Below, piece by piece: positions 9,057 through 49,296 of a stretch of DNA of 64,000 bases. This DNA is from Hexactinellida sp. DTS-2022 (Eukaryota; Porifera; Hexactinellida). The notes below the pieces were generated by a model. It searched no databases. It saw only the letters and a list, made by a program, of their open reading frames with translations, and was not told where the DNA came from. Both the position numbers and the translations under genes were made by a program. The DNA is taken from positions 4,650,001 to 4,714,000 of the forward strand of contig JAPNXP010000005.1 of the NCBI GenBank assembly GCA_028753945.1, read 5' to 3'. Each line of letters begins with the position of its first letter. Position 1 is the stretch's first letter.

Positions 9057-9342
9057 GTAGTTGTCACCTCGGGACCAGGTTACTTTGACCCGATTAAACG
9101 GATAAATCTATTGACCGGTGGCTCCAGTGTATTATACAGCCATTTGTAAATACGCTCCTAATCCTGGTCTGATCCAATTTTCATACGCCTAAATCACAAA
9201 TTAATGTTACTATATAGGAGAAGATTCCAAATTTTCGCGCTCCTAAATTACAATTTTCCAAAAATCATACTCCAAAAGGAACGTCTCGCGCTCCTGGATA
9301 ATTCCTTGGGTGGCTTTATTAAGCGGAGTGGAGTCAGTGGAC
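9057..9342. mobile_element. pogo-like MITE (GCTTAATAGAGCC family) split by insertion
   Basis: The halves TCACCTCGGGACCAGGTTAC..ACCGGTGGCTC (9060-9122) and GGTGGCTTTATTAAGCGGAG..GACTGTA (about 9309-9342) belong to the family at 29986-30175. A hAT-like MITE at 9123-9308 lies between them, flanked by GGTGGCTC and GGTGGCTT. Confidence 0.7.
9123..9308 (+). mobile_element. hAT-like MITE, complete copy
   Basis: Begins CAGTGTATTATACAGCCATT and ends CTCCTGGATAATTCCTTG. The flanking 8 bp are GGTGGCTC on the left and GGTGGCTT on the right, a near-perfect 8-bp target duplication typical of hAT transposons. No coding capacity. Confidence 0.8.
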
Positions 9343-28481: not shown

Positions 28482-31400
28482 ATGATTCCTTTGACCAGAA
28501 GAAGTTCGCATGAGTATATAAGCAGACCGAAATCAGCTCAGGGCATTCTCAAGTGCCCTTCTCCATTGAGTATTTACTGTTCCGAAGCAGAATTTCAAAC
28601 TCCGAAACAATCTGAATTGAGTCCACTCGTAGATTTTCAATATTTCGCATCCGATCAAGTAATTCGTTCTAACTCGGTTTCGACTGGAATACTTCGTCCC
28701 CGTAGATACACCAGCTCTGGAATTTCTCCCTCACAGAACCTACAAACCGTTAAAAACACCCGACCCTTACAGTCCGCATTTCGCACGCGTAGTTTGAGCA
28801 CACAACACAATATGTTTACACGCACTTACGAAAAGGAGTTTATAAGCCCACGTGCCTCATGTCCGTCACAGCCCAATTTAAGACTTCGCACCTACAACTC
28901 CCTTGTAGGTGCCCCCCTTATAACACAGTACAAACACAGTATTTCTTTGTCAGACAACGATATATCACTCCTATGGTCACGTAATAAGGTCCCTGGAGAA
29001 AACACAGATATAACAAAGGTGTATTCTCTCATGGTGAAGCATTGGTTTTCATCGCAAGCTGAGAGATTGAATGCTACCATGGCACCTAAATCTAATCTCT
29101 TCTCCTTTCTCCGTTGTTTCAGTTATGTGGAGATATCTTGGTACCCTGATGCATGCTACAGTAGGTTAGTTGATTACAATTCTATATACGGGCGTTAGGC
29201 GGGAATTCTACGAAATAATTTAGTGTAAATATTGGCTTCATGTTATTCTACTTTTTTAATTAAAAAATTCGTTAAGAAGGTTTCGCTATAAATTTCCCAA
29301 TTAATTAATTAAAGATCAATTAAATTTGTGTTTGGCATATCTAGTGACATACTCTGTTGGCAGGAAGACAGTCTGAATAACAACTTGAATCTAATTACGC
29401 CTTAGTCTCCCGGTCGCGAATATTATTATCATTTTACCACTCAGGTTATTTATTACAATTCCCATAGGATTTGTATCAAAGCCTTATTCTCTATCAGGAA
29501 TAAATTTTTATTCCCTAACGTCCATGTGTGAAAGTAATTTGCAAAATTTTATATACAGTAGAACCTGTTAATACGCCGCCCAAGGGACTGTCACTGGCCA
29601 AAAATGTCCGTAATACACAAGTTGATTATCCGTTATACACAAATTGATTATCCGCTATACACAAATTGATTATCCGTTATTTACAAGTTGATTATCCGTT
29701 ATATACAAGTTGATTAGCCGTTATACACAGGTTGATTATAATATGTGAAGTCATGTGGGGACCTATTAAGTGGCCGTTATAGACAGGGTATTATACAGGA
29801 CTAGATTTGAACACTCCTAAGTTCAATATATCAATAAATAATTAAATTTGTACGCCTAAAAGGTTAATTTTGTATTATTCTATGGGGACTTTCGTCAGTT
29901 TTCGCGCTCCTAAACGCAATCATATGTCAATTTATACGCTTCTAGGCGTATGCGCGCTCCTGGATAAAACCCTGGTTATAGACATACAGTCAACTCCGCT
30001 TAATAGAGCCACCGGTTAATCAGTTTCTCCGCTTAATCGGGTCAAAATTCACAGGTTTTATAGGACAGAATTACAGTTTGGCTAACAATATTTTCGGTTA
30101 ATCGGGTTCTCCGCTTAATCGGGTCAAAACAACCTGGTTCCGAAGTGGCTCTATTAATTAAGCTGAGTTAACTGTATTCTACTGTATTCAGTAGACATTA
30201 TTATGGATTGTTATTGCAGGTCAGCTGACAAATGCCGCGGGTGTGAGGGCGACTTCTTCCAACAAGAACCGTGTCTGCTACACGACAACCGACTCTGGCA
30301 CTACGGCTGTCTCAGATGCTCTCTCTGCAACCACGAAATTAAGGCTAACACCCCCTACCTCTGTCCAACCGATACAGAGTCTAAATTCAGAGAAGTTAAG
30401 CATTCCATGGTGGGCACCCAGTCGCTAGGCCGGAAGCGTAGCTTCTCCTTCTCGCCCGAGTATTGGAAGGGAGTGCATCAAATAGTTTGTATGAACTGTG
30501 TGCCGACATGCAGCGGGTGCATTCATCCCGTCCTGCACAACCACGCTATGGCCATAGGCAGACACTGGCATCACGACTGTTTCAGATGCTCCTCTTGTGG
30601 AGAGGTTAGTGTGGTAGTTTAAGAATACAGTCAACTCCGCTTAATAGAGCCACCGGTTAATCGGTTTCTCCGCTTAATCGGGTCAAAATTTCACAGGATT
30701 TATAGGACAGAATTACAGTTTGGCCTACAATATTTTCGGTTAATCGGTTTCTCCGCTTAATCGGGTCAAAACAACCTGGTCCCGAGGTGGCTCTATTAAG
30801 CGGAGTTGACTGTACGTAATATACAGTGGATGCCGGTTATATGCACATCGTCGGGAACTGCATATAGTGTTCTTATTACCGGCATAAATTATACAGGGTA
30901 TATGAAAACCGTTTTCCAATATAATGTTCTTATATCCGATAATTCTTATAACCGGTGTTCTTATACCCGGTATCTACTGTAGTAAATATATATATCGTTA
31001 ATACAGTCGAAATCGGGGTTTTTTGCCCCCCAAAATGCACGACAAAAGGAGGCAAAAAAACCCAATAAGCAAAAAAACCCGATGGAAAACACATTAAGAT
31101 ATCACATTTTTGCACGACAAAAGGAGGCAAAAAAACCCGTGGCAAAAAACCCCGATTTCGACTGTAGTTGACATCCTCTATACAGTAAACATTGGATTTA
31201 ACGACAAATAGCTAATAACAACTTATTCTCTTGCCCAGAGGTCCGTAGTAGTATTTGAATCTACTTTGGATTTATTCAAATAAAATACAAACTGATCTCT
31301 ATTTGGTACTATTCACTAATTAAATTGATTTACTGTCACCATTCTTATTTAATGGTTGTTGAATTAAGCAAATTAATTATTTCACATTCCTATGAAACGG

Positions 31401-34400
31401 ATGGTTTTCTAGTTAATTTGGCTGGTCTTATGATTAACACGTGCTAACAGCTAAATTAGTGCTAGTGCTGTACCATTACATAACATTACATAAATCTAGC
31501 TTGTACAGAGAGTCGATTGTAATCTATTAATTTTGTCAAAGAGCAATTTCTATGTAATATGATGATCTCATTAGATTCCATATATGATAATTCAATATTT
31601 AACCTTATTTAGTATACGACATTATGTTCTAACTGAATTTGGTGCAAGATTATAACATCTAGTGATTAATTTTAAGCTCTTTGAATATTCTATATCTGTA
31701 GGCCCGTTTAAACGTTACGTAACGCTTACAAGGGGTGATTGAACTCCCGTTATAACCAAGTCGGATATTCGGATATAACGAAATACCTGATCCTGCTTAT
31801 AACGAATATCCGGATATAACGAAGGAATTTACCGTCTATTTCTAGACCAGGTTTTTACTTAAATACTATTACGGTATTACCCATAGACGGCAGGGCTTTT
31901 GGTCTACAGACTTTATAGACAGTTTACTTTTGCTTATTTGTATGGTCTTTTATTTACCGTCAATAAATAGACCATCTACACTCTTAATATATTTACTAAT
32001 TTAGCATTTGGGAGAGAACACAAAGGTCTACGGGAAATCCGGAGAGGTGTCTTGTTCGCGATGTGTCCGTCCTCTGTTCGTCCTCGCTAATCCCAAGCTA
32101 CTGCGCAGCGCTCTCAGCCTAGAAGAGTCAGAAGATGATATAGATACTCCTCTTGATAACTACGGAGCCAAGCTAGGTAGCAATAAGATCTGTAGAGAGA
32201 ATAGTCAGCTATTCTCGAGTGTTACAGAGATGGCATCTGCTTTCGCCTATGCACTATCAGTAAGTTTATAATTTATACTTTATTACAGTCGACTCCGCTT
32301 AATAGAGCCACCGGTTAATAGATTTCTCCGCTTATTCGGGGTCAAAATTTCACAGGATTTATAGGACGGAATTACATTTTGGCTTAAACTATTTTCAGTT
32401 AATAAATTTCTCCGCTTAATCGGGTCAAAGTTACCTGGTCCCGAGGTGACTCTATTAAGCGGAGTCAACTGTATTTTTAGAAAAATTCTTCTAAGTATCC
32501 AAATTGGGCATTATATCTTACAGCGTGGATCAAATAACTTTCACCATATTACAAAGTCCACATTTCTAATTTATTAAATCCCAGGTGCTTTCTAACCACA
32601 CCATTTCTGAAAGGATTTCCAAGGATTAATTTTACTTTTGATATAGATATCACGGATAATATTATACATATACGATAGAGAATATTTCTTATGGCACGTT
32701 GATTCCTGGAGATACATTTATGTACAAATTATTGTGGCTAACTAGTTAATTAGTTGTTAATCTATCCACCTACAGATGAATAGTTTTAGCATGATAAATA
32801 TTTGTATTTTTTGTCTGTATTGTTTTAAAATTTAGACAACCTAAAATAGAGATTTAACTTTGGTTTGTAGCAAAACGTGTAAAACGTTGAAACAAACAAT
32901 CTCGATTATTCGAACAAGGCTGATCCAAAAGTTGTTGCTAAAGTAGTTCAGTGTTAACTTATCCGAATTTGTCTCAACGAGTTCTGATTACCAAGGTTGC
33001 ACTGTAATTTGGCATTTTGGGTTATGTCACCACATTATACGTATATTAGAATTTGCTTTAAATCTTGAGTTGCAAGAATCTATAATTTATTCAGAGTTTA
33101 TTTTTATCATCGCCAGATAGTAAGCTATAAAACCTGTATAATGAAATAATAAGTGTCTGGTATTCAACAATATACGTTTTATCTAGAATACACATTGTAA
33201 TCAAAAATTACCAACTTTAAATCCAATTATTTTATCACCTTAACCTTAACGTCAAATATGGTAAGTTTGGTAACATATGTCTTGTTACTAAACTCGATTA
33301 TCTGTTATTTGACTTCATATTTTCCATACAAATTCTATTTTGCTAGTATACTAACATACGGTTTGTTCTTCAGTATATTAATGATTATTTATGCAACCAA
33401 TTCAAGCGTGTAAATAAGTTACCAGTAAATAGAACAAAGGAATATTTAATAGTTTGAGTAGATTTGATAATAAATAATTGCGAAAATATATGTGTTAAAA
33501 CAAATAATTGAAAAGGTTAAATGGTACTCTCTGCTCTAAAATCTAAAATTTCTTCTTTTTCATTCAATTCCTTTTCCCTCAAATCGACCTCATCTAATTC
33601 CTCTTTGAATTTGAGAGAATTTAATTTATTTGAATTTAAGTTGTGTAGCCATCTCAAATACGACATTTTAGAGTTCATTTCTCGATCTCTTTTCTGTCGG
33701 GCCTTAACCTGCTCTTCTTTGTCCGTCTGCTGTTTTATTTGCATTCTCATTTCTTCTTCAAGTTTCATTTTATCTTCCAACCATTTTGAGAAACTAGTTT
33801 GTTTATTTTCCTCTCTCTTCTTCAATATAATATGCTGTAAGCTATCTATATTTGTTGAATGGGACTTTGACATTTTCAACTGAGCAACTGGATCAGAGAA
33901 AGTTAACATAACTTGGGTGCCTGGGATGAATTCTTTTGCTCTTTGTGGATCGAACCAACTATAATCAAACTTCTCTCCAGGAGAGGAGACCTGCTCTGTT
34001 TCATCACAGCTGTGAGAAATCGCATTTCTCTTTGTTTTGAGTTTTTCCCATTTCTTGCATTCCTAACAACAGAATGGGTACTTAGGTATTATTGTTAGAT
34101 CGTCACCCAATACTAATATCGTCAAATAATAATAATACTGCCAAATAATGTACGTATTATGTGAAATTTAATTAAGATCTAAGTATATGTGTCATGATTA
34201 CTAGCTTACAAAGATAAGTTTTTGAAGTGTAAGCATTTGCCATCGTTCTATACCATAACTTTTCTGGTTAATTACGTACCAAAATTATATCCGTTAGTAT
34301 TTACGTACCTGAATTGGAATCTGGTTTTCATATACAGCAATGTACCTAGTCTGTAATTTCCCTTTAAGCACAGCTGAATTTCTCGAGTCCATCGCTTGGT

Positions 34401-37400
34401 GTGCTAATCTATAGCAGAGATCTCTCGTCTTATAAGGACTGTAATCTTTTTTCCAGCGATCCACCTGGTTATACTTCTGCAAATTCCATGAACAGAAATT
34501 CAAGCTCTGCTCGCATTTCTTTGCACAATGAATTCTACTTAGATCCAGTGCAGTCTTACCCTGGTTGTCAGTCAGCATAATGTCGGCTCCCTTATCTATA
34601 AGAATACACAAACAGCGCCATTGGTTAGCGCGAGCTGCCGCGTGTAGCGCGCTCCAATTCGTCCTGGTGACTGCGTTAATGTCGACTTGTGTCAGCCGTA
34701 GTATCCGCTCTAAAAGCCGCGAATGGCCGCGATGCGCTGCGATGAATAGCGCCATGAAAGCCCTGAATTTACTTTGTTCGTCCGCCTCTGAAATATTGTA
34801 CTCTTCCATCTCTGGCATGAGGCCCGCGAAAGCATGCGTTAACACAGATTCCCACATCTTCCATGGACGTAGATTAACCCGTGCCCTGGGCACTATTTCG
34901 TGCTGTGCTACTGTACAGTGGTCTAGGAGATCAGCTTTGTCCAGATAACTGAGTCGGTATAGTTCTGTTGGTATACCGAGATCGTGTTCGATCATGGCTT
35001 TAACCTCGTTTACCTTGAGGCTGTTGTGTACATTGTTTAGCTCTATGACTTCTCCCTGTGGTAGGACTATCCTTATGCTGTAGGTGTGGGGCTTTCTTAC
35101 GCTGGGTAACATCTAACTTGTGTTTTACAAATTACAATATATTCTCGTTAATACGAATACCACCGTTGAAATTTGTTTGTATTGCCTGGAGTTCGTGTTA
35201 ACCGGAGTAATTAGCATGCATTTGTATAAATTAGGGGAATAATACCTTGTACTCCTTAAAGGATATTTCGCCATATTGGTGGTATTCGTATTCAACGAGA
35301 ATCTATTGTAGTTTTGCAACACTAATTAATTCACTATTTCTATGTAGACAATTATGAACTTTAGCACACTAACAGCTCCTTGTAAATCTTATGTTCTAGT
35401 TAAACTATTTTAATTGCAAGGAAAAATACTTGAATGTGGTTTAATTAATAAACTGCTCTAATGACCAGACGAGTTTCACTTTTTTTTTAAATTCCAATTT
35501 AAGCATATTTCGTTTAAATCTCAGCTGTCTTCTATATCTTTATTAATAACTGTTTACATTTCACTCTTTAATGTTAAAATATTCAATTGTTGTAATGGAA
35601 TAACACTGAATAATAGGTTTGTACTATAATTGACTGTACTTAATTAGGAACATACCGAGAAGAATGAAGAAATTCAGCTGCCAGAAACACACAGGAATTA
35701 CAGCGAAAACTTGAATGCGTTTCTAACTTATAACAGTCTGGATAGGAGGTTAGTCTTTAGTTATTAATTATTAGTCCTCGAAAGCAGATTTTAATTAATA
35801 TTGTCGAATTTTGCAAAAGAATATTCACAAATTTGTGCCACAAGGTATTTTATATTAATTAAGCAATAAAAATATTTTGTTCCAAATTTCAACAGATAAT
35901 CTTTTCAGTTTTCTTATCATTTTGTCAATTACAGATTTACAAATACAGTCAACTCCCGTTATAACGATCCGACTTGTTTATAACGGGAGTTGACTGTATA
36001 TTTTATACAATAGACAACTCAAGGAGCGGAAGCGGCAAAAAGGCGCGATGATTAATCTCACGAGCAGTTTCAAGAGTGAGAAGGGAGTGGTTGCTTCTCC
36101 TATCGTTTGTAAAACAGTGCCCACATCCCTCGCGTCTTATAACACAATTATCAACAGCCATGAGGGGAGATCCTTGGTAATAGTTAGATCTAGTGTAAAG
36201 TAATGTAGAAACACAGTATACTCTCGTTAATTAAATAGAATAAAACTTCAAAAAATGAACACCTTCAAAAAATGAACTACTGTACTCCAAAATATGAACA
36301 CTTTTTCTCGGTTATTTTCTGATTGCTTTAGACACAGATTATGATAAATCATGAAAATGAACACCTCTCAAAAGTGAACATTTTGGCTGGTCCCTAAGGT
36401 GTTCACTTTCTGATGGTTTTACTGTAAATAATTAGCACATGGATAAGGCGAAATATCGGTTTAGGGGTATAAAGTTTAATTCCCCTACCCTATACAATGT
36501 ATGCAAGTATCTCCAGTTAATATGAATTCCTGATAATACGAACAAATATCAACATTCCCCTGGTATTCGTACTATCGAGAGTCTACTGTATATAATTTTT
36601 AGTCGACTCCATTCAATTGAGACAAACCTCAAACAACTAATTGGAGTCCACAGTAGAGTATACACATTTATTATCAATCTTTTAGCTGATAGAGTACTGT
36701 ATCGAGAAATACGAGATAGACAAGGTATACTTCATAAGCGACGTTGAGGGAATCAAAGATTACGATACAGAGGCGTTGGACTGGCTAGTGCTAGTTCGTA
36801 AAATGTACAAAATGTATATTTCTCCTGATGGACAGCCTGATATGTATCTGAACTTACCTAAAGATATTGTGGATGAAATCAAAGAGAAGATAAAAGCACA
36901 AAATTGCCCAATGGGTGGGTAATAAGATTAGGATTTCCAAGCGGGGTTTACTAATATGTACAGGCCATCCTTTTGTATTACAAAATCGTTAAAAAAGGGC
37001 GAGATAATTTTCGGGAATTTGTGTTACATAACGTTTGAACGACCCAAAGCTACCATATTACAAATCATTAATTTTTAAAGGATTATTTAAATAACTACAT
37101 TGTTTGGCGAGTGTATAAAAGTATCGGTCGCCAATAAGTAAACCGTTTATTATGTGGAGTCTATTGTATCTATTGAGATAAATGTCTCTTGTTTAGAAAT
37201 ATTCCACAGAGCACGTGATTTCGTGTTGAACCAAGTGGAGAAGAATATCGTCAAACATTTCCTGAAGAGTTCTAACGGCTCTCAATATCTGAAAGCGTTG
37301 GTGTCATTCGATAACGTATCGCGACAAGTAATCAGGTAAATAAATGTTCTAAGTCCTTACTTATTTATCGGTCAACACCTTTTCAATAGACACCCAAATT

Positions 37401-40400
37401 CGCAAGGGTGAACTTTTTTATTTTTAGAAAAAGTGTTGCCCGATATATAAGTACAGTAGAACCTCGTTAATACGAAATTCAGGTTAATACGAACACTATT
37501 TCAGTCCCCTTCAAAGCCTTTTCAATACAAATGATATTTGTAATACGAATTCTGGATAAGGCGAAATCATTTTTGACGTTCCCTTGGTGTTCGTACTAAC
37601 GAGATTTTATTATAAATACTACTCATTTAAAATACACTGTACATGTTTATTTATTGTTTATTAGGTCTATCAGTCGCAACGTAAACAAGTTGGAGATAGC
37701 TTTGAGTGTCATTGGATTTGATAAGAGACATGATACTGACAGACCGAAAGGGAAATCAAAGTATTATGTAAGTAAAGTCAATAAAAACACGATTATATTT
37801 AATCCTGGTCTGATCCCCTTGAAATCCTTTTTTATATACATTTTGGATGAGGCGAACAAAATTTGATTGTCCCATCATGGTGTCCGTAATAACGAAAATC
37901 GACTGTAAGTACTAAAAAGTAAACAAAATAAGACTTTAATAGTTATCCAAGTTAATTCAACATTTTTACAATAAACTTAGACTGATTAGGGCTTACTAAT
38001 TTATCGGCCAACATGCAACACCTTTTGAATATAAAACCCGGCTTCACAAAAGTGATTTTTGTTGTAAAAAAATAACCTTGCCAGGACCTGAAAATTACAT
38101 TAGAAAGGTGTTGGTCGAAATATAAGTAATTACATATTTAGTTAATTGTATTTACTTATACAAAAGGGGTTCGTTTAAGCTTGTAGTTCCTCCAAATCTC
38201 CATTGTCTCTTCTTTTCTCTTCTTATTAACAATATAGCCAAGTGTATGTAGAATGGATTCATCAATAAGAAAAATATACACAGACATAGCTCTTGTATAA
38301 TAAAAACTGCGAATTCGTATTGATCAAAAATTAAATTTAGAATATTTTCAATGCATGCTGGAATCTCCACTCCGTATACTACTTTATAGTAGCAACTGTT
38401 CAAGGCAATATTCTGAATAAAGTAGAATGGCATTTGAATTATCAAACAATTCGATATTTGTAACTGAAAAGCTGCGATTAAATTTAAGAGAAAAACTTTA
38501 TCTGTAAATTTGTTATTTCGATAGCTGGTTGTAATTCCCAATTATCCAGAGCTAAATATTGAATCCTCAATTCTCTCAACAGTTTTCTTGTTTGCTTAAT
38601 TAATATAACAATGAATATCTGAGAAGATATCATAATAACTGCATACCCCATTGATACCGTCCACGGTACCATGTAAAGTATCAGTGTTGCAACCCAATAG
38701 ACTGTTGAAATAATCGCGAGTTTTATTAACTTTCTATAATCTATTCTCTCTTTTAACCACATCCTGGAATACAGCAGTAGAATACACAGAATTTCCAGAT
38801 AATACACGTTCAGTTATGTATGTAGTGAGCTTACCAAATTAGATGCTAATGTGATTGAGTCTGTACTGAACGATTCACTTAAGAATGTGCCTTGTTCCAT
38901 TCTACAGTTAGTACGGATTGTAATGTTACTGTTTGAGCTCACAAACTGTTCTATAAAACTCCCTATATTGTATGTTAAGAAATACAACACTTCCACTAAT
39001 AGGAGCCATAATAAGAGCTCTCTTTATAAATAGCGAATATCTTTATTTGAAATCCATCTTTGTAAGGTATTCTCCTTAAATTATTGAATGATACGATTAT
39101 AGCTGATATGAATAATATTAGTAACACGATTGTGTCGATTCCACCCAGAATATTGCTTATCAGGATAAGTATGTTAAAAACAGAAACCTCTGTATTATTA
39201 CTGTAGATTATCTGCATTGTGTAAGTATTCTTAACTATTCAACCTAACAATTCTTATATTTTATACTAAGAGGATTGTTGCACTATAATTATGTAATATA
39301 TTACCATTTATATTATGTTTACTGTTATTTCTAGCATTTTTATGGAAATTTATTTTTGCTTGTAATAATATGATGTAATAGTTGTGAGAATTTTGATCAA
39401 TTTTTTGTTGATTAATATTTCACAAAAAATACACAGTTCTCTTTATGAACTGCACACAAAATTTTAGTTATTTTATTTTATTCCAAAATTACTTACATTT
39501 ATTTATGTTGCAATAATTAAAATTACCTATCCTATACACAGGTCTATGAAATTCAAGTTCAGATAGGAGATTATCAGTTCACAGTATTCAGAGCTTACAA
39601 ACAATTCTACAATCTACACGAGAACTTAAAGAAAGAATTCCCTAAACAGTTACCACAATTTCCTCACAAAATATATTTGAGAAAGAGTGAAGTAAAGAGT
39701 ATTGCGAAACAACGTGCATCTGACCTCAGTGACTATTTGCAGGTATGTTTTTATAACAAATAATTGAGCTTAATAAAATTTATACTAATTAGCTAAATAT
39801 CATAAATATCAGACATGATACAAGATAGAAACAAACTTCCAATATATCAATTGATAATTATGCCACGTAATACCTAAAGTCCTAAACATATTGGTCTTAA
39901 GGGTAATCTGTATTGATATTCGGGCGTTCACGGTGAATCTCAGAATTGCATAATTTACTACTAGGAATACTCTAGATGAGATAGAGATTGACTTCTATGA
40001 TTTTTTTTTTCTTAATTTTCAATCAAGATGGTGTTTTTTAATAAAATAAGACGTCGACTTCCTTATATGGGCATGACATTTTTTCAAAAATTGTTGAATC
40101 TTTTTGAATTTTTGAACATATTATTATGAGACTATTTCCTCTCAGTAATAATTTTTATTTTATTTATTTTTGCAGAAGAAACGATGCTAAAGGGCATTTT
40201 TTCAAAATAATCATAAAACGCAGTCGTGCACTAAAGTATCGTTATAAAATGTTAGAAGAAAAAATTTTCAATTCTAGTTCAAGGGTCTGAGGATGTATCA
40301 TGTATTACCCCAGAGAAATTTTTTGACTTTCTGATAATTATTTTTGGTTTTATAAGCATTCTAAGGCTTCGGCCCACGAATTTTTCCGAATTTCAACATC

Positions 40401-42746
40401 AAAAGAGGTGATAAAATTCTACACTGCCATATATTGTTCCCAAAATTAAAAAATTCGGATTCTACAGGTCAAAATATACAGGTTCACGTCAAAAAGTTCA
40501 GGAATATGTCAAAAATTAGGAAATTAGGGGCATAAAAGAATATGAAGGGTATGCAAGTACCCGGTGATCATATATTACTGTGGGAAATTGGACAGCAGAA
40601 TAATTCTGTTATTCTTCATAATAATGCGCCAGCTTCTTATCTATGCGTGGCATTTGTTTTCAACACTTTTACAATAATATATCATGAGTTATGACCAATT
40701 TATGACTATGGTTTTGTCTGTTTTGTCATATTTTCACACCTCAAGGCCCTCAAATATACAATAATGTATTATATAAAACACCAATTTGGTAATACAAATA
40801 TGGAAATAGCATTTGCGCACAAAATGAGACGTTACACAACACGATCCAATCATTATTCGATAAGTTATGGACTTTTGGGCCACAGAAGGGGGCAAAAAAT
40901 CTGACATTTCACACCTGTTGATATTTCAGAAACGCTTTGAGATAAAATGATAATAGGCATTAGAAAATACTGTAAATACCTGACTTTCTATACGTTGATA
41001 ATACATTTTAGGACTCTAGGTGTCACACTTTTTAACATGACCATATATGGTAATTTGATGTTCCCAATTTTGATGACGAAGCAAATTTTGTAACTCTTGA
41101 TCTCTGGACAGCAGAGACTAGCTCTAAAATTCTAGTCACATCATGATACTATTTCTTACTCATTGGATAACTTTTGGGATTATATTATAATTCGAATGAT
41201 GTGTTCTGATTTCAAATGCCAAATATGGTGGTGTCAAAGTGGCAATATGTTAAAAGGGTGACAAAAATCCAACTTCTGATCCAAATGAGATAGAGCTTTG
41301 CTCTAAATTGCTAAAAATAGTATAATTCAATTTCAAATGTCATTATCTATTTTATGCAGTTTAGGAACTCCTTTTCTTCGCACTTTCATATTCTGGACTC
41401 AGCCACTTCGACACAAATTAATTAAATGCTAATTATGAAGGTGTAAAAAAAGACCATTTGGGCATATGGATGTAAAAAAGAGAATTTTTATTCTAGAAAG
41501 TCAAACTTTTTTTTAAAATGCTCAGTATAAGTAGGCGCATGTTTTAAAAGACCTGAGTTTAGGCATTATAATACAAAAAAATTGAATTAGTATACATTTA
41601 ATGAAAAATAGTGGTTTTTTTTGACCAATTTCACAAAAATGACAATAACATAGAGTAGATTAAAGAAAAAGCATATTTCGAGATCTTTTAAAACATTGAG
41701 TATTGACTCAGGTATATTTTATAATTGACATGTTTCGGGCTAAAAACTAACATAAATTTTTTTTTTAATTCTTTGGCTAGTATGGATTAGGCCTATATTG
41801 ACATTGTCTAGTTCATAACTAAGGATATATACATAGTAGAACTCTAATATTTTCAGGGATATCTTAGATATATTAGTACTATCCAAAAACGCAATAAAAA
41901 CATTAGGTCGTCGGGTGTCAAAATATCAGTACTGAGCACCCTTAACACTTTGAGGTGATGATTTTGTGAATTCGATATTTCGTATGTTGGTTGGCGTTGG
42001 GCAAAGACCCAACATCCACAGAAAAAATGCTGACTCATCATCTATTATATTCTGCTGGAACTTGAATATCTATGTAATGAATTGAGCTAAAATGAAACTC
42101 CAACACTCTAAAAGGGTCGTTTCCTTCGAAACACCTTTCTGAAATGGTTTAACACCTTTATAGTGGCGATGACATTACAAAAAATCTAAAATTATAGCTG
42201 TGCCGATAGTATGTTCTTTTGGAATTTGGAGGCACTATCAAACCACCAAAAGAAAGTGCTTCAAAGGAATATGCTCTCGGCACTGCTATAATTTTAGATT
42301 TTTTTCTATATAATAAACACTTCTTTACTATGAATCGAATTTAAAATTTGACTGAACTGTAATATGTTGTGAATTTATATAAAGTGCTAGGTAGACCGTT
42401 TTAATTCTAACTCTAATTTAGGATATAAGCAGTTATTGTAACTAATAAGATTATAATACTTAGGAGTTCGTACTATTTTGAAACGAGCAAATCCAATTAC
42501 ACTCCACTTAATTGGGTCACTTTGTTCCGAGGGTATTTTGACCCAGTTTAAACCCAATTAATAAATTAAAATGAATTCTATAAATATTATAAAATGTCTC
42601 TTTAGGAATTGGTTACTAAAAAGCCCGAAATTTCCAAACACCAAGAACTGCTAACCTTCATAAAACAAACCGAAATTGATGTAAAGGACGAGGAATTCAA
42701 CAATTTCTTAACACTACACGGAGTGAGAAGTAATAAGAATTTCTGA
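28482..42746 (+). CDS. LIM-LIM-RGS-PX protein (ten exons, reconstructed)
   Basis: Exons 28482-29164, 30220-30604, 32005-32259, 35648-35748, 36014-36176, 36686-36914, 37197-37335, 37665-37767, 39542-39742 and 42606-42746; all phases fit and no internal stop appears, giving 799 aa. Residues 1-228 are polar and unrecognised (LKCPSPLSIY, LLWSRNKVPG). LIM1 runs from CRGC (233) with about 50 residues between its last two Cys pairs; LIM2 is 325-376 (CSGC...HWHHDCFRCSSC...CSRC). An RGS domain follows (about 505-650, SLASYNTIINSHEGRSLLIEY...FHRARDFVLNQVEKNIVKHFLKSS), then a PX domain (about 680-790, YEIQVQIGDYQFTVFRAYKQF). RGS domains act on G-alpha; PX domains bind phosphoinositides. I know no family with this order. 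The joins exon 1 to LIM and LIM to RGS are the least certain. Confidence 0.6.
29555..29782. repeat. pogo-like MITE with expanded 22-bp tandem array
   Basis: Begins ACAGTAGAACCTGTTAATAC. Positions 29606-29738 hold six tandem units of about 22 bp, of the form TCCGTTATACACAAGTTGAT, differing by one to three bases. The element continues to about 29782, where a hAT-like MITE is inserted. In intron 1 of the LIM-RGS-PX gene. Confidence 0.75.
29783..29974 (+). mobile_element. hAT-like MITE with exact 8-bp duplication
   Basis: Starts CAGGGTATTATACAGGACTA and ends CTCCTGGATAAAACCCTG. GTTATAGA flanks both sides (29775-29782 and 29975-29982). It is inserted at the end of the preceding pogo-like MITE. 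Confidence 0.85.
29986..30175. mobile_element. pogo-like MITE, CTCCGCTTAATAGAGCC family
   Basis: ACAGTCAACTCCGCTTAATA at the left and TTAAGCTGAGTTAACTGTA at the right. (C/G)GTTAATCGG and GCTTAATCGGGTCAAAA motifs alternate four times inside. It ends 44 bp before the LIM exon acceptor. Confidence 0.88.
30627..30814. mobile_element. pogo-like MITE, CTCCGCTTAATAGAGCC family
   Basis: Close copy of 29986-30175, with ends ACAGTCAACTCCGCTTAATA / TATTAAGCGGAGTTGACTGT. It starts 22 bp after the 5' splice site of the LIM exon. Confidence 0.9.
30822..30981. mobile_element. pogo-like MITE, GGATGCCGGTTATATGCAC family
   Basis: ACAGTGGATGCCGGTTATAT to TTATACCCGGTATCTACTGT. It follows the previous MITE by only 7 bp. 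Confidence 0.85.
31001..31167. mobile_element. pogo-like MITE, CGAAATCGGGGTTTTTTGCC family
   Basis: ACAGTCGAAATCGGGGTTTT and its inverse at the right end (CCCCGATTTCGACTGTA). GGAGGCAAAAAAACCC is repeated inside. Third pogo-like element in a row within one intron. Confidence 0.85.
31736..31830. repeat. pogo-like MITE, GTTATAACCAAG family, partial
   Basis: TGAACTCCCGTTATAACCAA with five TATCCGGATATAACGAA-type motifs. The left ACAG end is missing and the right end runs into another MITE. Confidence 0.6.
31831..31982. repeat. GTAGACCGTCTA-family MITE
   Basis: Contains CCATAGACGGCAGGGCTTTTGG and several (T)AGACNGT / ACCGTC motifs. Relatives are at 53908-54045 and 62785-62926. It ends about 20 bp before the third exon of the LIM-RGS-PX gene. 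Confidence 0.6.
32285..32473. mobile_element. pogo-like MITE, CTCCGCTTAATAGAGCC family
   Basis: ACAGTCGACTCCGCTTAATA to TAAGCGGAGTCAACTGTA. It starts 24 bp after a splice donor. Confidence 0.88.
32474..33516. other. intron DNA, nothing recognised
   Basis: Inside intron 3 of the LIM-RGS-PX gene, before the 3' end of ANKRD60. AT-rich, with no repeat family or exon that I can support. Confidence 0.4.
33517..35112 (-). CDS. ANKRD60: ankyrin repeat protein ANKRD60-like (two exons, nested)
   Basis: Exons on the minus strand 35112-34309 and 34062-33517 join in phase 0 (donor GTACGT, acceptor TTGTTAG), giving 449 aa. The N-terminus (about 10-90) looks ubiquitin-like (TYSIRIVLPQGEVIELNN...YRLSYLDKADLLD). 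Two to three ankyrin repeats follow (about 115-195: LFIAAHRGHSRLLERILRL, NWSALHAAARANQW, QGKTALDLSRIH). Exon 2 adds a WFDPQRAKEF stretch and a long charged coiled coil (MKLEEEMRMQIKQQ...DLREKELNEKEE). This order is that of ANKRD60, a poorly studied protein; no function is established. The whole gene lies in an intron of the LIM-RGS-PX gene on the opposite strand. Confidence 0.82.
35133..35313. repeat. pogo-like MITE, CTCGTTAATACGAATACC family
   Basis: TTCTCGTTAATACGAATACC at the left and GGTATTCGTATTCAACGAGA at the right. It lies about 20 bp upstream of the ANKRD60 start codon, in its promoter region. Confidence 0.75.
35944..35999. mobile_element. 56-bp minimal pogo-like MITE
   Basis: ACAGTCAACTCCCGTTATAA, a few bases, then TTATAACGGGAGTTGACTGT: almost only the two inverted ends of the 8898-9056 family. 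It lies 14 bp before a splice acceptor of the LIM-RGS-PX gene. Confidence 0.85.
36213..36427. repeat. pogo-like MITE with AAATGAACACCT motifs
   Basis: Starts ACAGTATACTCTCGTTAATT and ends GTTTTACTGTA. Six (A)AA(A/G)TGAACA motifs recur in both orientations (GTGTTCACTTT near the end). Confidence 0.65.
36432..36600. repeat. pogo-like MITE, decayed, TACGAACAAAT subfamily
   Basis: GGATAAGGCGAAATATCGGT to ATTCGTACTATCGAGAGTCTACTGTA. Best relatives: 7440-7640, 51196-51325 and 56868-57013. Confidence 0.6.
37362..37452 (+). repeat. TATCGGCCAACACC-family MITE, short copy
   Basis: TTATCGGTCAACACCTTTTC to GTGTTGCCCGATATATAA; it abuts the pogo-like MITE at 37453. Confidence 0.65.
37453..37615. mobile_element. 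pogo-like MITE, CTCGTTAATACGAA family
   Basis: ACAGTAGAACCTCGTTAATA to TTCGTACTAACGAGATTTTA. Shares GAAAAGGCTTTGAAAGGGAC (inverse) with 48076-48261. Confidence 0.85.
37843..37907. repeat. pogo-like MITE fragment
   Basis: GGATGAGGCGAACAAAATTT to CGAAAATCGACTGTAAG; right half only. Confidence 0.5.
38000..38130 (+). repeat. TATCGGCCAACACC-family MITE
   Basis: TTTATCGGCCAACATGCAACACC to GGTGTTGGTCGAAATATAAG, with the core AAAACCCGGCTTCACAAAAG. Confidence 0.8.
38152..39217 (-). pseudogene. 7TM-like membrane protein, broken frame, nested in intron
   Basis: On the minus strand, open segments 39217-38996, about 39016-38814, 38807-38484 and 38541-38152 lie in shifting frames but are consistently hydrophobic. 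In order they supply about seven membrane helices: ILILISNILGGIDTIVLLILF, LLLWLLLVEVLYFLTY, LEILCILLLYSRMW, LAIISTVYWVATLILYMV, GYAVIMISSQIFIVILI, LLNLIAAFQLQISNCLI and FAVFIIQELCLCIFFLLM. A basic tail (RREKKRQW) follows, as in a receptor. One frame change could be explained by a roughly 80-bp intron (GTATCA...AAAGAGAG); the others need frameshifts, and one stop is in frame. It is either a decaying receptor gene or one with tiny introns I could not place. The family is not recognised. It lies within a LIM-RGS-PX intron. Confidence 0.45.
39743..42605. other. 2.9-kb intron, mostly unidentified DNA
   Basis: Last intron of the LIM-RGS-PX gene. About 39960-42060 has no inverted ends that I can see, no ORF of note and no match to the other families; it differs from the rest of the window in being free of recognisable MITEs. 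A CTGTGCCGA-family MITE occupies 42150-42306. A possible pogo-like remnant lies at about 42490-42560 (ACTCCACTTAATTGGGTCAC). Confidence 0.45.
42150..42306. repeat. CTGTGCCGAC-family MITE, copy 1 of 3
   Basis: Shares AACACCTTTATAGTG, AAATCTAAAATTATAGCTGTG and GGAGGCACTAT with 47027-47190 and 55787-55931. The subterminal repeats are inverted (ATAGCTGTGCCGAT..CTCGGCACTGCTAT). Confidence 0.8.
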
Positions 42747-43455: not shown

Positions 43456-44463
43456 TCAGCACTCTTTAGCGTCTGCGACTCCCCCCAATGTAATAGCGTA
43501 GCTTGCCTCGTTCTCTGGCATGTCGGGACTGTCGTATATCTTCGCTATTCTAATCTCGCCTCTCCCTTTTCGTAAGCTTAGACGCGTGGTGGACGCGTGA
43601 GCTAAAATGTGTCCTCCAATGGGTTTCTTTGGGTCGGCCTGAAATGACATGGTAGCGCCTGGATCAGCTGTCATTTGGTTTGTGATGAAAATCGCGACAT
43701 TGTATTCCTCAGATATTTTCTGTAGGCGTGAGAGCATTTGAGCTAACTTCTGCTGTCTGTCTGCTAGCTCGCCTCTCCCACTGAAATCCACACGGAACAG
43801 TGCCATTACCGAGTCTATGATGAGCAGCTTGAATATCCCTGGTTCATCATGGAATTTGGAAGCCACATTATCAATGAGCTCCATTTGGTGCTCACTAGTA
43901 TATGCCCGGGCGTATAATACGTTATCTAGCATTGCGCTGTGGTCAAGACTGAATCTGTCTGCGATGTCTTTAAGTCGATCGGGTCGAAATGTGTTTTCTG
44001 TGTCGATAAACACTACTTTCCCGCCTCCATACCCTTTGGCTCCTGGCAGCTGAGCTGTGACACACAGTGTGTGGGAAATCTGCGTTTTGCCAGTTCGGAA
44101 TTCCCCGAACGCTTCAGTTATTCCCATACTCTCGATTCCACCCCCACAGAGCTTATCTAGCTCGATAGACCCTGTGGTTATACGGAAAACTTGTTTCCTT
44201 TTGTCGCAGTAGACTAGAGCAGTCAGGAAATCTTCGCTGCATATCTTAGAAACTGCTTCTTTGATTTTGTCAACTTTTGCATCTGATAAACCTTTGATAT
44301 TCGCTAGTTTTTTGCGAGTTGTCATTTGTACTCCTTTCACAGTGCAAATGCCAGCTGTTTTTAGCTTCTTCAGGTCTGCGAGGTTCACTCCGTAATTCTG
44401 TAGCATTTCTACATCTTGATAATCCACATCGTTTCCTTCGTCACTACGTATAGACTGTTCCAT
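43456..44463 (-). CDS. DMC1: meiotic recombinase DMC1
   Basis: Intronless, 335 aa (human 340). The N-terminal HhH domain ([40 protein letters not shown]) is followed by the RecA core with Walker A GEFRTGKT (about 118-125), ATPase stretches [15 protein letters not shown] and [16 protein letters not shown], loop L1 [17 protein letters not shown] and loop L2 region [25 protein letters not shown]. The conserved [11 protein letters not shown]...DPKKPIGGH and the YSEKR-like segment distinguish DMC1 from RAD51. It forms the filament for strand exchange between homologues in meiosis. RAD51D lies 4 kb away. I see no break, so it is probably functional. Confidence 0.95.
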
Positions 44464-44746
44464 TGATAATGTATCTAGTTTGATTTTTCTGAGATTATGC
44501 AGAGTTTGCTATTTATTATAACCAGGACCATTCAGATTCATCCTAACTCAAATGCAGCTGAATTTCACAATGTTCTATTTTAAAGTTTGAAATAATTCAA
44601 GATTATGTGCAAGTTTATTCATTTACATATAAATCTGACTTAGTTAGAAGGGAAATCACTATAAATACTAATAATCGTGTTTTTTTTACAAAATACATAA
44701 TCTAGATTCTAGAGTTATACAATACGTATATTTCCTGTGTGTGGTA

Positions 44747-48297: not shown

Positions 48298-49296
48298 ATG
48301 GATGGGCTACGTGATCTCAATAAACAAATTGAAGCGAAGAACGAAGAGGAAACTGGCAAGACAAAGGGCCGCATTCCTTTGGTCCGATCTCTGGAAGAGT
48401 TCATAACAACCGACTTACAAAAAGACATAAACTATAACAGTTTCACGACCCCATCAATAATACAATGTCAAGAAGAGCTATTACTCGAGCACTCCACATT
48501 ACCAACACAAGCCTCTGTGCTCTTAGATTTCGCATTAGACAAGTGCCATCCTATTCCCACTGGTCTACCGAGTGTGGACATGCTCTTACAAGGGGGCGTG
48601 TACCCTGGTGAGGTCACTGAAGTTCTAGGCGCAATTTCAACAGGAAAAACACAGCTGTTACACCTGCTGGCTATTAATTGCGCACATTCACTCAGCACTG
48701 TGCTTTATATCGATAATAACTGTAGTTTTAGTGCTAGAAGAGCTCTGAGACTTTGGTCTAAAATAAATTCGCACACAGATGAAACACAGAGTACTACGGG
48801 AGAAAATATGCTCAAGAGTATACGGGTTCTCTCCTTATACGATCCATTGCTATTGCTTCCAATGCTGAGAAACTTGCTTACAAATATTCAAGAGAAAACC
48901 AACGATTTCTACTCAACTATAAGATTAGTTATTTTTGATAATTTCTCATTTCTACTCTCCCCTATTTTAGAAGGATTTACAATACATGGATTAATACTAT
49001 ACTCACAAATAGAGAAAACGATTAATTATATCGCGAATGTTCACAACATTGCTGTTGTAATCGCGAATAGAAGTTCACCGCTTTTTCACACCCCAGACAC
49101 TAACCTTATAAACACATTCAAATACAATCGTTTAGGATACCAGTGGAATAACGTAGCTTCGACCAGAATTCTATTAGACCGTGATATTACACAGACAGAC
49201 ACACCCTCGAGATCTAAAGTTAAGATATTCTTGCTAAGATCCAACTTAGCTCAGGAGAGATACGAGTCTGAATTCAAAATACCAATCACAAAATAG
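48298..49296 (+). CDS. RAD51D: RAD51 paralogue RAD51D
   Basis: Intronless, 332 aa (human 328). The RecA core has Walker A GAISTGKTQ after GEVTEVLG, Walker B LVIFDNFSF, AVVIANRSS, and the RAD51D-typical STRILLDRD before the end. The start of the core, PTGLPSVDMLLQGGVYPGEVTEV, matches the human order [22 protein letters not shown]. The N-terminal domain is poorly conserved. RAD51D works in the BCDX2 complex with RAD51B, RAD51C and XRCC2 to load and stabilise RAD51. It lies 4 kb from DMC1. Confidence 0.87.
   Translation: MDGLRDLNKQIEAKNEEETGKTKGRIPLVRSLEEFITTDLQKDINYNSFTTPSIIQCQEELLLEHSTLPTQASVLLDFALDKCHPIPTGLPSVDMLLQGGVYPGEVTEVLGAISTGKTQLLHLLAINCAHSLSTVLYIDNNCSFSARRALRLWSKINSHTDETQSTTGENMLKSIRVLSLYDPLLLLPMLRNLLTNIQEKTNDFYSTIRLVIFDNFSFLLSPILEGFTIHGLILYSQIEKTINYIANVHNIAVVIANRSSPLFHTPDTNLINTFKYNRLGYQWNNVASTRILLDRDITQTDTPSRSKVKIFLLRSNLAQERYESEFKIPITK

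What the first reader, a model, noticed from the sequence alone, without database searches (positions are those of the whole stretch)
28482..42746. A LIM-LIM-RGS-PX protein: domain order I do not know from any family
Seen: ten segments with consensus donors and acceptors join without a stop, with matching phases at all nine junctions (2400 nt). They encode two LIM domains, an RGS domain and a PX domain. Known: RGS and PX occur together in SNX13/14/25-type nexins, but those also have PXA and nexin-C domains and no LIM. Inference: a new G-protein/phosphoinositide adaptor architecture, possibly lineage-specific. Main risk: two neighbouring genes wrongly joined.
Basis: partly seen in the sequence, partly recalled or inferred. 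Interest (0 to 1): 0.85.

Follow-up and report, generated by a model that had tools for sequence, protein, structure and literature searches.

The report
Unusual LIM-LIM-RGS-PX animal gene
What looks like an animal gene appears to join two zinc-binding LIM domains, an altered G-protein-regulator domain and an altered membrane-lipid-binding domain in one protein; it looks like a membrane-docked adaptor rather than a working G-protein off-switch, but no transcript has been seen.

Summary
The ten exons at 28482-42746 join without a stop (2400 nt, 799 aa) and Pfam finds LIM x2, RGS and PX above the curated cut-offs. LIM2, RGS and PX are each split by introns, so the LIM block (exons 2-3) and the RGS-PX block (exons 5-10) are firm. 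The weak joints are exons 1/2 and 3/4. For 3/4: exon 4 has no ATG, an in-frame TAG stands right before it, and its frame has coding-like codon use, so it needs an upstream coding exon; exon 3 ends in a perfect phase-0 GTAAGT donor; alternatives inside the intron are poor but not absent, and poly(A) signals lean the other way. I put one gene at about 0.8. It is not an RGS nexin: no PXA or Nexin_C; this genome holds two separate nexins. The RGS box keeps one of three contacts reported as critical for GAP action; the PX domain has Ala for the 3-phosphate Arg but keeps a secondary-site His and Lys. Prediction: a non-catalytic RGS scaffold docked on PIP2/PIP3 membranes. Transcripts and orthologues in other animals could not be tested.

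The parts
28482..29164 (+). Exon 1: Ser/Thr/Arg-rich, no domain above cut-off; its join to exon 2 is the least certain
   Evidence: Open 253-codon ORF; codon score 0.069 per codon; donor GTTAGT. Could be a separate ORF ending at 29198, with a LIM start at an in-frame ATG at 30203
30220..30604 (+). Exon 2: LIM1 (with insertion) and first half of LIM2
   Evidence: Pfam LIM, ligand pattern, paxillin/CRP1/LMO2 matches
32005..32259 (+). Exon 3: second half of LIM2 and acidic linker; ends TCA|GTAAGT, phase 0
   Evidence: the part after LIM2 scores 0.359 per codon
35648..35748 (+). Exon 4: linker, no ATG in frame, in-frame TAG just before it
   Evidence: open in this frame; codon score 0.178, reached by 3.2% of open noncoding windows
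36014..36176 (+). Exon 5: linker and start of RGS
36686..36914 (+). Exon 6: RGS core
37197..37335 (+). Exon 7: end of RGS
37665..37767 (+). Exon 8: spacer and start of PX
   Evidence: the match to SGK3-type PX begins in this exon
39542..39742 (+). Exon 9: PX core, FRAY motif and LPQFPHK loop
42606..42746 (+). Exon 10: end of PX, C-terminus, stop
33517..35112 (-). Opposite-strand gene inside intron 3: ankyrin repeats with a possible ubiquitin-like N-terminus, two ORFs/exons (context, not part of the protein)
   Evidence: Ank_2 5e-17; ubiquitin E 0.0053, below its cut-off; codon scores 0.238 and 0.117; second ORF has no Pfam match above cut-off

Best explanation
A single ten-exon gene encodes a 799-residue LIM-LIM-RGS-PX protein. 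Shown: the domains, the open spliced frame, residue changes in RGS and PX. Inferred: exon 3 is spliced to exon 4 across the nested ankyrin gene; the PX domain docks on di-/tri-phosphorylated phosphoinositides (plasma membrane) rather than on endosomal PtdIns3P; the RGS box no longer speeds GTP hydrolysis but binds G-alpha or another partner; the LIM pair holds a protein partner, probably of the cytoskeleton or adhesion sites. It would work as a membrane-docked scaffold.
For: Domains above cut-offs. Exon 4 plus the start of exon 5 (45 codons): only 3.0% of noncoding windows stay open so long, and of those 0.29% score as high. Exon 3 ends in GTAAGT, present 0.29 times per kb per strand in this window, so by my arithmetic about 0.06 expected in the 207 nt between LIM2 and the stop. 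Of 50 alternative 3' exons of 15 or more codons in intron 3, the nine that score 0.15 or more all lie opposite the ankyrin gene. PX: the p40phox-like protein at L020 keeps FRRY, this one has FRAY; SGK3 LYNTLKK aligns with LHENLKK (third alignment); the rule for the two sites is from PMC6449406 (passages). RGS: Asn128, Asn88 and Asp163 are named as critical in PMC8252600 (passages); the residues aligned with them are N585, K542 and N622.
Against: No transcript. Intron 3 is 3388 nt and holds another gene. An AATAAA lies 129 nt after the stop that follows exon 3, and no AATAAA or ATTAAA within 300 nt after the exon 10 stop; 12 of 16 other gene ends that I picked in the window have one within 300 nt, against 41% of 2000 random stretches. 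A one-codon first exon ATG|GTAAGT at 33258 could serve a separate RGS-PX gene. Function is read from residues alone, and the RGS is divergent.
Confidence: 0.55

Rival explanations
1. Two neighbouring genes: a tandem-LIM protein ending at the stop after exon 3 (32271), and an RGS-PX protein with its own start between 32270 and 36048, possibly sharing a promoter region with the divergent ankyrin gene that starts at 35112.
For: Ankyrin ORF starts with an ATG at 35112, about 535 nt from exon 4; AATAAA at 32401; ATG|GTAAGT at 33258; the first in-frame Met of the RGS block (M487) lies in exon 5, before the RGS domain; no AATAAA/ATTAAA within 300 nt of the exon 10 stop.
Against: Exon 4 and the start of exon 5 look coding but have no ATG and an in-frame TAG upstream; perfect GTAAGT at the end of exon 3; of 32 ATG..GT phase-0 first exons in intron 3 only 3 have a donor-like hexamer, of 1, 4 and 7 codons; the AATAAA lies in a repeat copy also found in introns 1 and 2.
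Confidence: 0.2
2. Exon 1 is a separate single-exon gene (or the LIM gene starts at ATG 30203); the protein is then about 575-580 residues, still LIM-LIM-RGS-PX. This can be true together with either of the other readings.
For: Exon 1 ORF runs on to a stop at 29198; an in-frame ATG at 30203 precedes LIM1; exon 1 codon score, 0.069, is the second lowest of ten.
Against: Donor GTTAGT at 29164, as at exons 2 and 4, and a TTGTTATTGCAG acceptor at 30220 in matching phase.
Confidence: 0.3
3. A diverged SNX13/14/25-type RGS nexin that lost PXA and Nexin_C.
For: RGS followed by PX, as in those nexins.
Against: No PXA or Nexin_C; best PX match in this genome is p40phox-like at 37% identity, and the nexin PX loci are not among the 17 matches at E up to 0.1; best of 27 PDB matches are CISK/SGK3 and PI3K-C2-alpha PX, and SNX13, 14 and 25 are not among the 27; two separate nexins exist here. 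No tree was built.
Confidence: 0.05

Closest known systems
SNX-RGS sorting nexins (SNX13, SNX14, SNX25; yeast Mdm1; fly Snz)
   Same: RGS followed by PX in one protein; SNX14 RGS is reported to bind G-alpha-s without GAP activity (PMC7956473, passages)
   Different: No PXA, no Nexin_C/PXC found; two LIM domains in front; PX nearer p40phox/SGK3
p40phox (NCF4) and SGK3, PX domain only
   Same: Best PX matches (37% to the PX-SH3-PB1 protein at L020, domains: SGK3)
   Different: No SH3, PB1 or kinase match; the 3-phosphate Arg is Ala
Tandem-LIM adaptors (paxillin, CRP1, LMO2)
   Same: Adjacent LIM pair with full ligand set
   Different: Insertion in LIM1; joined to RGS and PX

Membership tests
SNX-RGS sorting nexins | RGS then PX | tested here: met
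SNX-RGS sorting nexins | PXA domain | tested here: not met
   No PXA up to E 10; found in L004 of the same genome at 2e-25
SNX-RGS sorting nexins | Nexin_C / PXC domain | tested here: not met
   found in L004 and L018
SNX-RGS sorting nexins | N-terminal membrane anchor | not tested
   No transmembrane prediction was run
Catalytic RGS GAP proteins | Asn88, Asn128, Asp163 (RGS4 numbering) | tested here: not met
   1 of 3 kept (N585); K542 and N622 at the others. The C13 and C1 RGS domains keep 3 of 3 in the alignment; L003 too, read by eye from the printed translation. The other RGS of the alignment (L004-L007) were not scored. Positions of RGS4 residues in the RGS motif are recalled
PtdIns3P-binding PX domains (groups II and IV of PMC6449406) | Arg-Tyr pair, Lys of the PPK loop, Arg of helix 2 | tested here: not met
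   A704 (Arg lost); Y705, K729, R744 kept: 3 of 4
Group III PX domains | Canonical site broken; His/Tyr in helix 1 with nearby Lys/Arg | tested here: met
   A704; H712, K716, K717. By sequence only
Group III PX domains | Binds PIP2/PIP3 but not PtdIns3P | not testable with these tools
   needs a lipid-binding assay
LIM proteins | C-x2-C..H-x2-C-x2-C-x2-C..C-x2-[CHD] | tested here: met
   both domains; LIM1 only with an enlarged second finger

The most novel reading that the evidence does not exclude
A previously undescribed family of animal signalling scaffolds with fixed order LIM-LIM-RGS-PX, in which a GAP-dead RGS box is docked by a PIP2/PIP3-reading PX domain and tied to the cytoskeleton by a LIM pair, made by joining a LIM adaptor to a p40phox/SGK3-type PX rather than derived from RGS nexins.
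Probability: 0.4. Interest if true: 0.6.

Novelty: new variant of a known kind. Interest (0 to 1): 0.42.

Why it matters
In the two reviews whose passages I saw (PMC7956473; PMC8864675) the proteins with both RGS and PX are nexins flanked by PXA and PXC. A second, independent RGS-PX combination with LIM domains would show another way in which animals wired G-protein signalling to membranes and the cytoskeleton, and it gives clean, testable predictions (no PtdIns3P binding, no GAP activity).

Tried and rejected
Relatives: two scans of bacterial/archaeal genomes and one of viral contigs found none, as expected for an animal gene; these scans reach close relatives only, so nothing is known here about other animals. 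Searches of the window's own genome: 10 RGS, 42 LIM and 22 PX matches at E up to 0.001, lower bounds by the tool's own note; the RGS list does not contain this gene, the LIM and PX lists contain one exon of it each. A protein search gave 17 matches at E up to 0.1: 9 are this gene's own exons, 8 lie elsewhere (7 match the PX part, 1 the LIM part), none is an RGS. By position I saw no other place where LIM, RGS and PX come together as one gene; on C18 such matches lie within about 70 kb and on C13 a LIM and an RGS lie 5.6 kb apart, and whether these are separate genes was judged from distance and open frames only. RGS alone against the PDB gave 4 matches, none an RGS. Hydrophobic minus-strand ORFs in intron 8 were considered as a second nested gene; 4 of 4 codon scores are negative (-0.06 to -0.21) and 3 of the 4 were scanned with Pfam, without a match above cut-off, so they are not used as support. 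Literature, open PMC text only: the one paper holding the phrases LIM domain, RGS domain and PX domain (PMC6639074) has them in the methods and reference list (passages); searches listed 1, 9, 15 of 31, 0 and 30 of 35 papers. Of all listed papers I opened seven, passages only (PMC6449406, PMC7956473, PMC12716839, PMC8252600, PMC7572916, PMC8864675, PMC6639074); none of those passages describes LIM with RGS and PX in one protein. PMC12716839 (choanoflagellate GPCR pathways) treats RGS but showed no LIM or PX domain. Searches served the organism, PX and RGS questions.

Full report
What was checked.

Gene model. The ten exons join in phase into 2400 nt with one terminal stop. Pfam-A gives LIM (two stretches), RGS (516-631) and PX (697-774), all above the curated cut-offs, and no PXA or Nexin_C. 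Introns cut through LIM2 (exons 2/3), RGS (5/6, 6/7) and PX (8/9, 9/10), so within each block the exons belong together. Exon 7 to exon 8 is a 329-nt intron. The open joints are 1/2 and 3/4.

Joint 3/4. Intron 3 is 3388 nt and contains, on the other strand, an ankyrin gene in two ORFs with a possible ubiquitin-like start (33517-35112). I trained a codon-use score on 41 ORFs, 21,457 codons, from the window and fetched loci, against 28,932 nt of noncoding window sequence (rebuilt). Exon 4 alone is open in this frame (8.0% of noncoding windows of 33 codons are) and 3.2% of the open windows score as high. With the stretch of exon 5 before its Met the numbers are 3.0% open and 0.29%. The region from LIM2 to RGS (139 codons) scores 0.333 per codon; windows of 50 codons average 0.210 in coding and -0.149 in open noncoding sequence. 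Exon 4 has no ATG in frame and an in-frame TAG immediately upstream, so if it is coding, another coding exon must precede it in phase 0. Exon 3 offers exactly that with TCA|GTAAGT. Of 32 ATG..GT phase-0 stretches in intron 3, three have a donor-like hexamer, of 1, 4 and 7 codons; the first, ATG|GTAAGT at 33258, cannot be excluded as a one-codon first exon. On the other side, 50 alternative last exons of 15 or more codons exist for exon 3; the nine that score 0.15 or more lie opposite the ankyrin gene.

Results against. An AATAAA lies 129 nt after the stop that follows exon 3, and no AATAAA or ATTAAA lies within 300 nt of the exon 10 stop, while 12 of 16 other gene ends that I picked in the window have one (random stretches 41%). 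The first AATAAA is inside a repeat copy of about 190 nt that also sits in introns 1 and 2. Taken together I judge one gene at about 0.8 and two genes at about 0.2; these odds are mine, not computed.

Is it a nexin? The same genome has a PXA-RGS-PX-Nexin_C ORF (L004) and an RGS-PX-Nexin_C ORF (L018) on C18; for L018 only the single ORF was scanned, so a PXA in other exons is not excluded. The window protein lacks both flanking domains. Its best PX match elsewhere in the genome is a PX-SH3-PB1 protein of p40phox type on C6 (37%, E 2.7e-13), and in the PDB a designed CISK PX and SGK3 PX (1.7e-12 to 7.5e-11, the top four of 27). So it is not filed as a nexin.

How it may work. [quoted passage not shown] and that His/Tyr in helix 1 with nearby basic residues makes a second site for di- and tri-phosphorylated lipids. 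Here the pair is Ala704-Tyr705; Lys729 and Arg744 are kept; His712 with Lys716 and Lys717 match the SGK3 Tyr and Lys-Lys. That predicts the paper's group III. PMC8252600 (passages) names RGS4 Asn128, Asn88 and Asp163 as critical contacts; the aligned residues are Asn585, Lys542 and Asn622, while the RGS domains at C13 and C1 in the same genome keep all three (L003 does too, read by eye from the printed translation since it was left out of the alignment for a terminal stop). PMC7956473 (passages) gives SNX14 as a precedent for an RGS box that binds G-alpha-s without GAP activity. The LIM pair has a complete ligand set, LIM1 with an insertion in its second finger, and resembles paxillin, CRP1 and LMO2 LIMs. 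I infer a membrane-docked, non-catalytic scaffold. That step rests on residues only, and the RGS domain is divergent enough that a single-sequence PDB search missed the RGS family.

Novelty. None of the passages that I opened in seven papers describes these three domains in one protein, and the search for six phrases joining LIM and RGS had 0 papers, in open PMC text only; most listed papers were not opened and no animal proteome could be searched. It is a new combination of known domains, hence a new variant of a known kind.

Noticed in passing
window 29984-30172, 30625-30814, 32283-32473 (approximate ends): Three copies of one repeat of about 190 nt (CAGTCAACTCCGCTTAATAGAGCC...), one in each of introns 1, 2 and 3, within about 20-50 nt of a splice site; ends look like those of a small DNA transposon (recalled). 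A further end-like match at 9309.
   Followed up: partly
window 29585-29760: 22-nt tandem array in intron 1.
   Followed up: no
window 33517-35112, minus strand: Two-ORF gene with a possible ubiquitin-like start and ankyrin repeats inside intron 3; reminds of ANKUB1/ANKRD60 (recalled).
   Followed up: partly
window 38152-39217, minus strand: Run of hydrophobic overlapping ORFs in intron 8, like a multi-pass membrane protein, but with noncoding-like codon use; perhaps a decayed or fast-evolving gene.
   Followed up: partly
window 43456-44508 minus and 48298-49296 plus: A Rad51/DMC1-type recombinase (Pfam Rad51 1.9e-113) and about 4 kb away an ORF that looks like a Rad51 paralogue (recalled, not scanned).
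   Followed up: no
window, whole: Many genes look like single long ORFs without introns, among them a 1034-codon transporter; this gene with nine introns stands out.
   Followed up: no
G000:C18:5930000-6000000 (L004, L007, L018, L019): Two RGS nexin ORFs, an ORF with two RGS stretches and LIM matches lie within about 70 kb on C18; whether this is chance was not tested.
   Followed up: no
G000:C13:288262-294409 (L001): A LIM match (603-codon ORF) lies 5.6 kb before the RGS/GoLoco ORF of L001 on the same strand; whether they belong to one gene was not checked.
   Followed up: no
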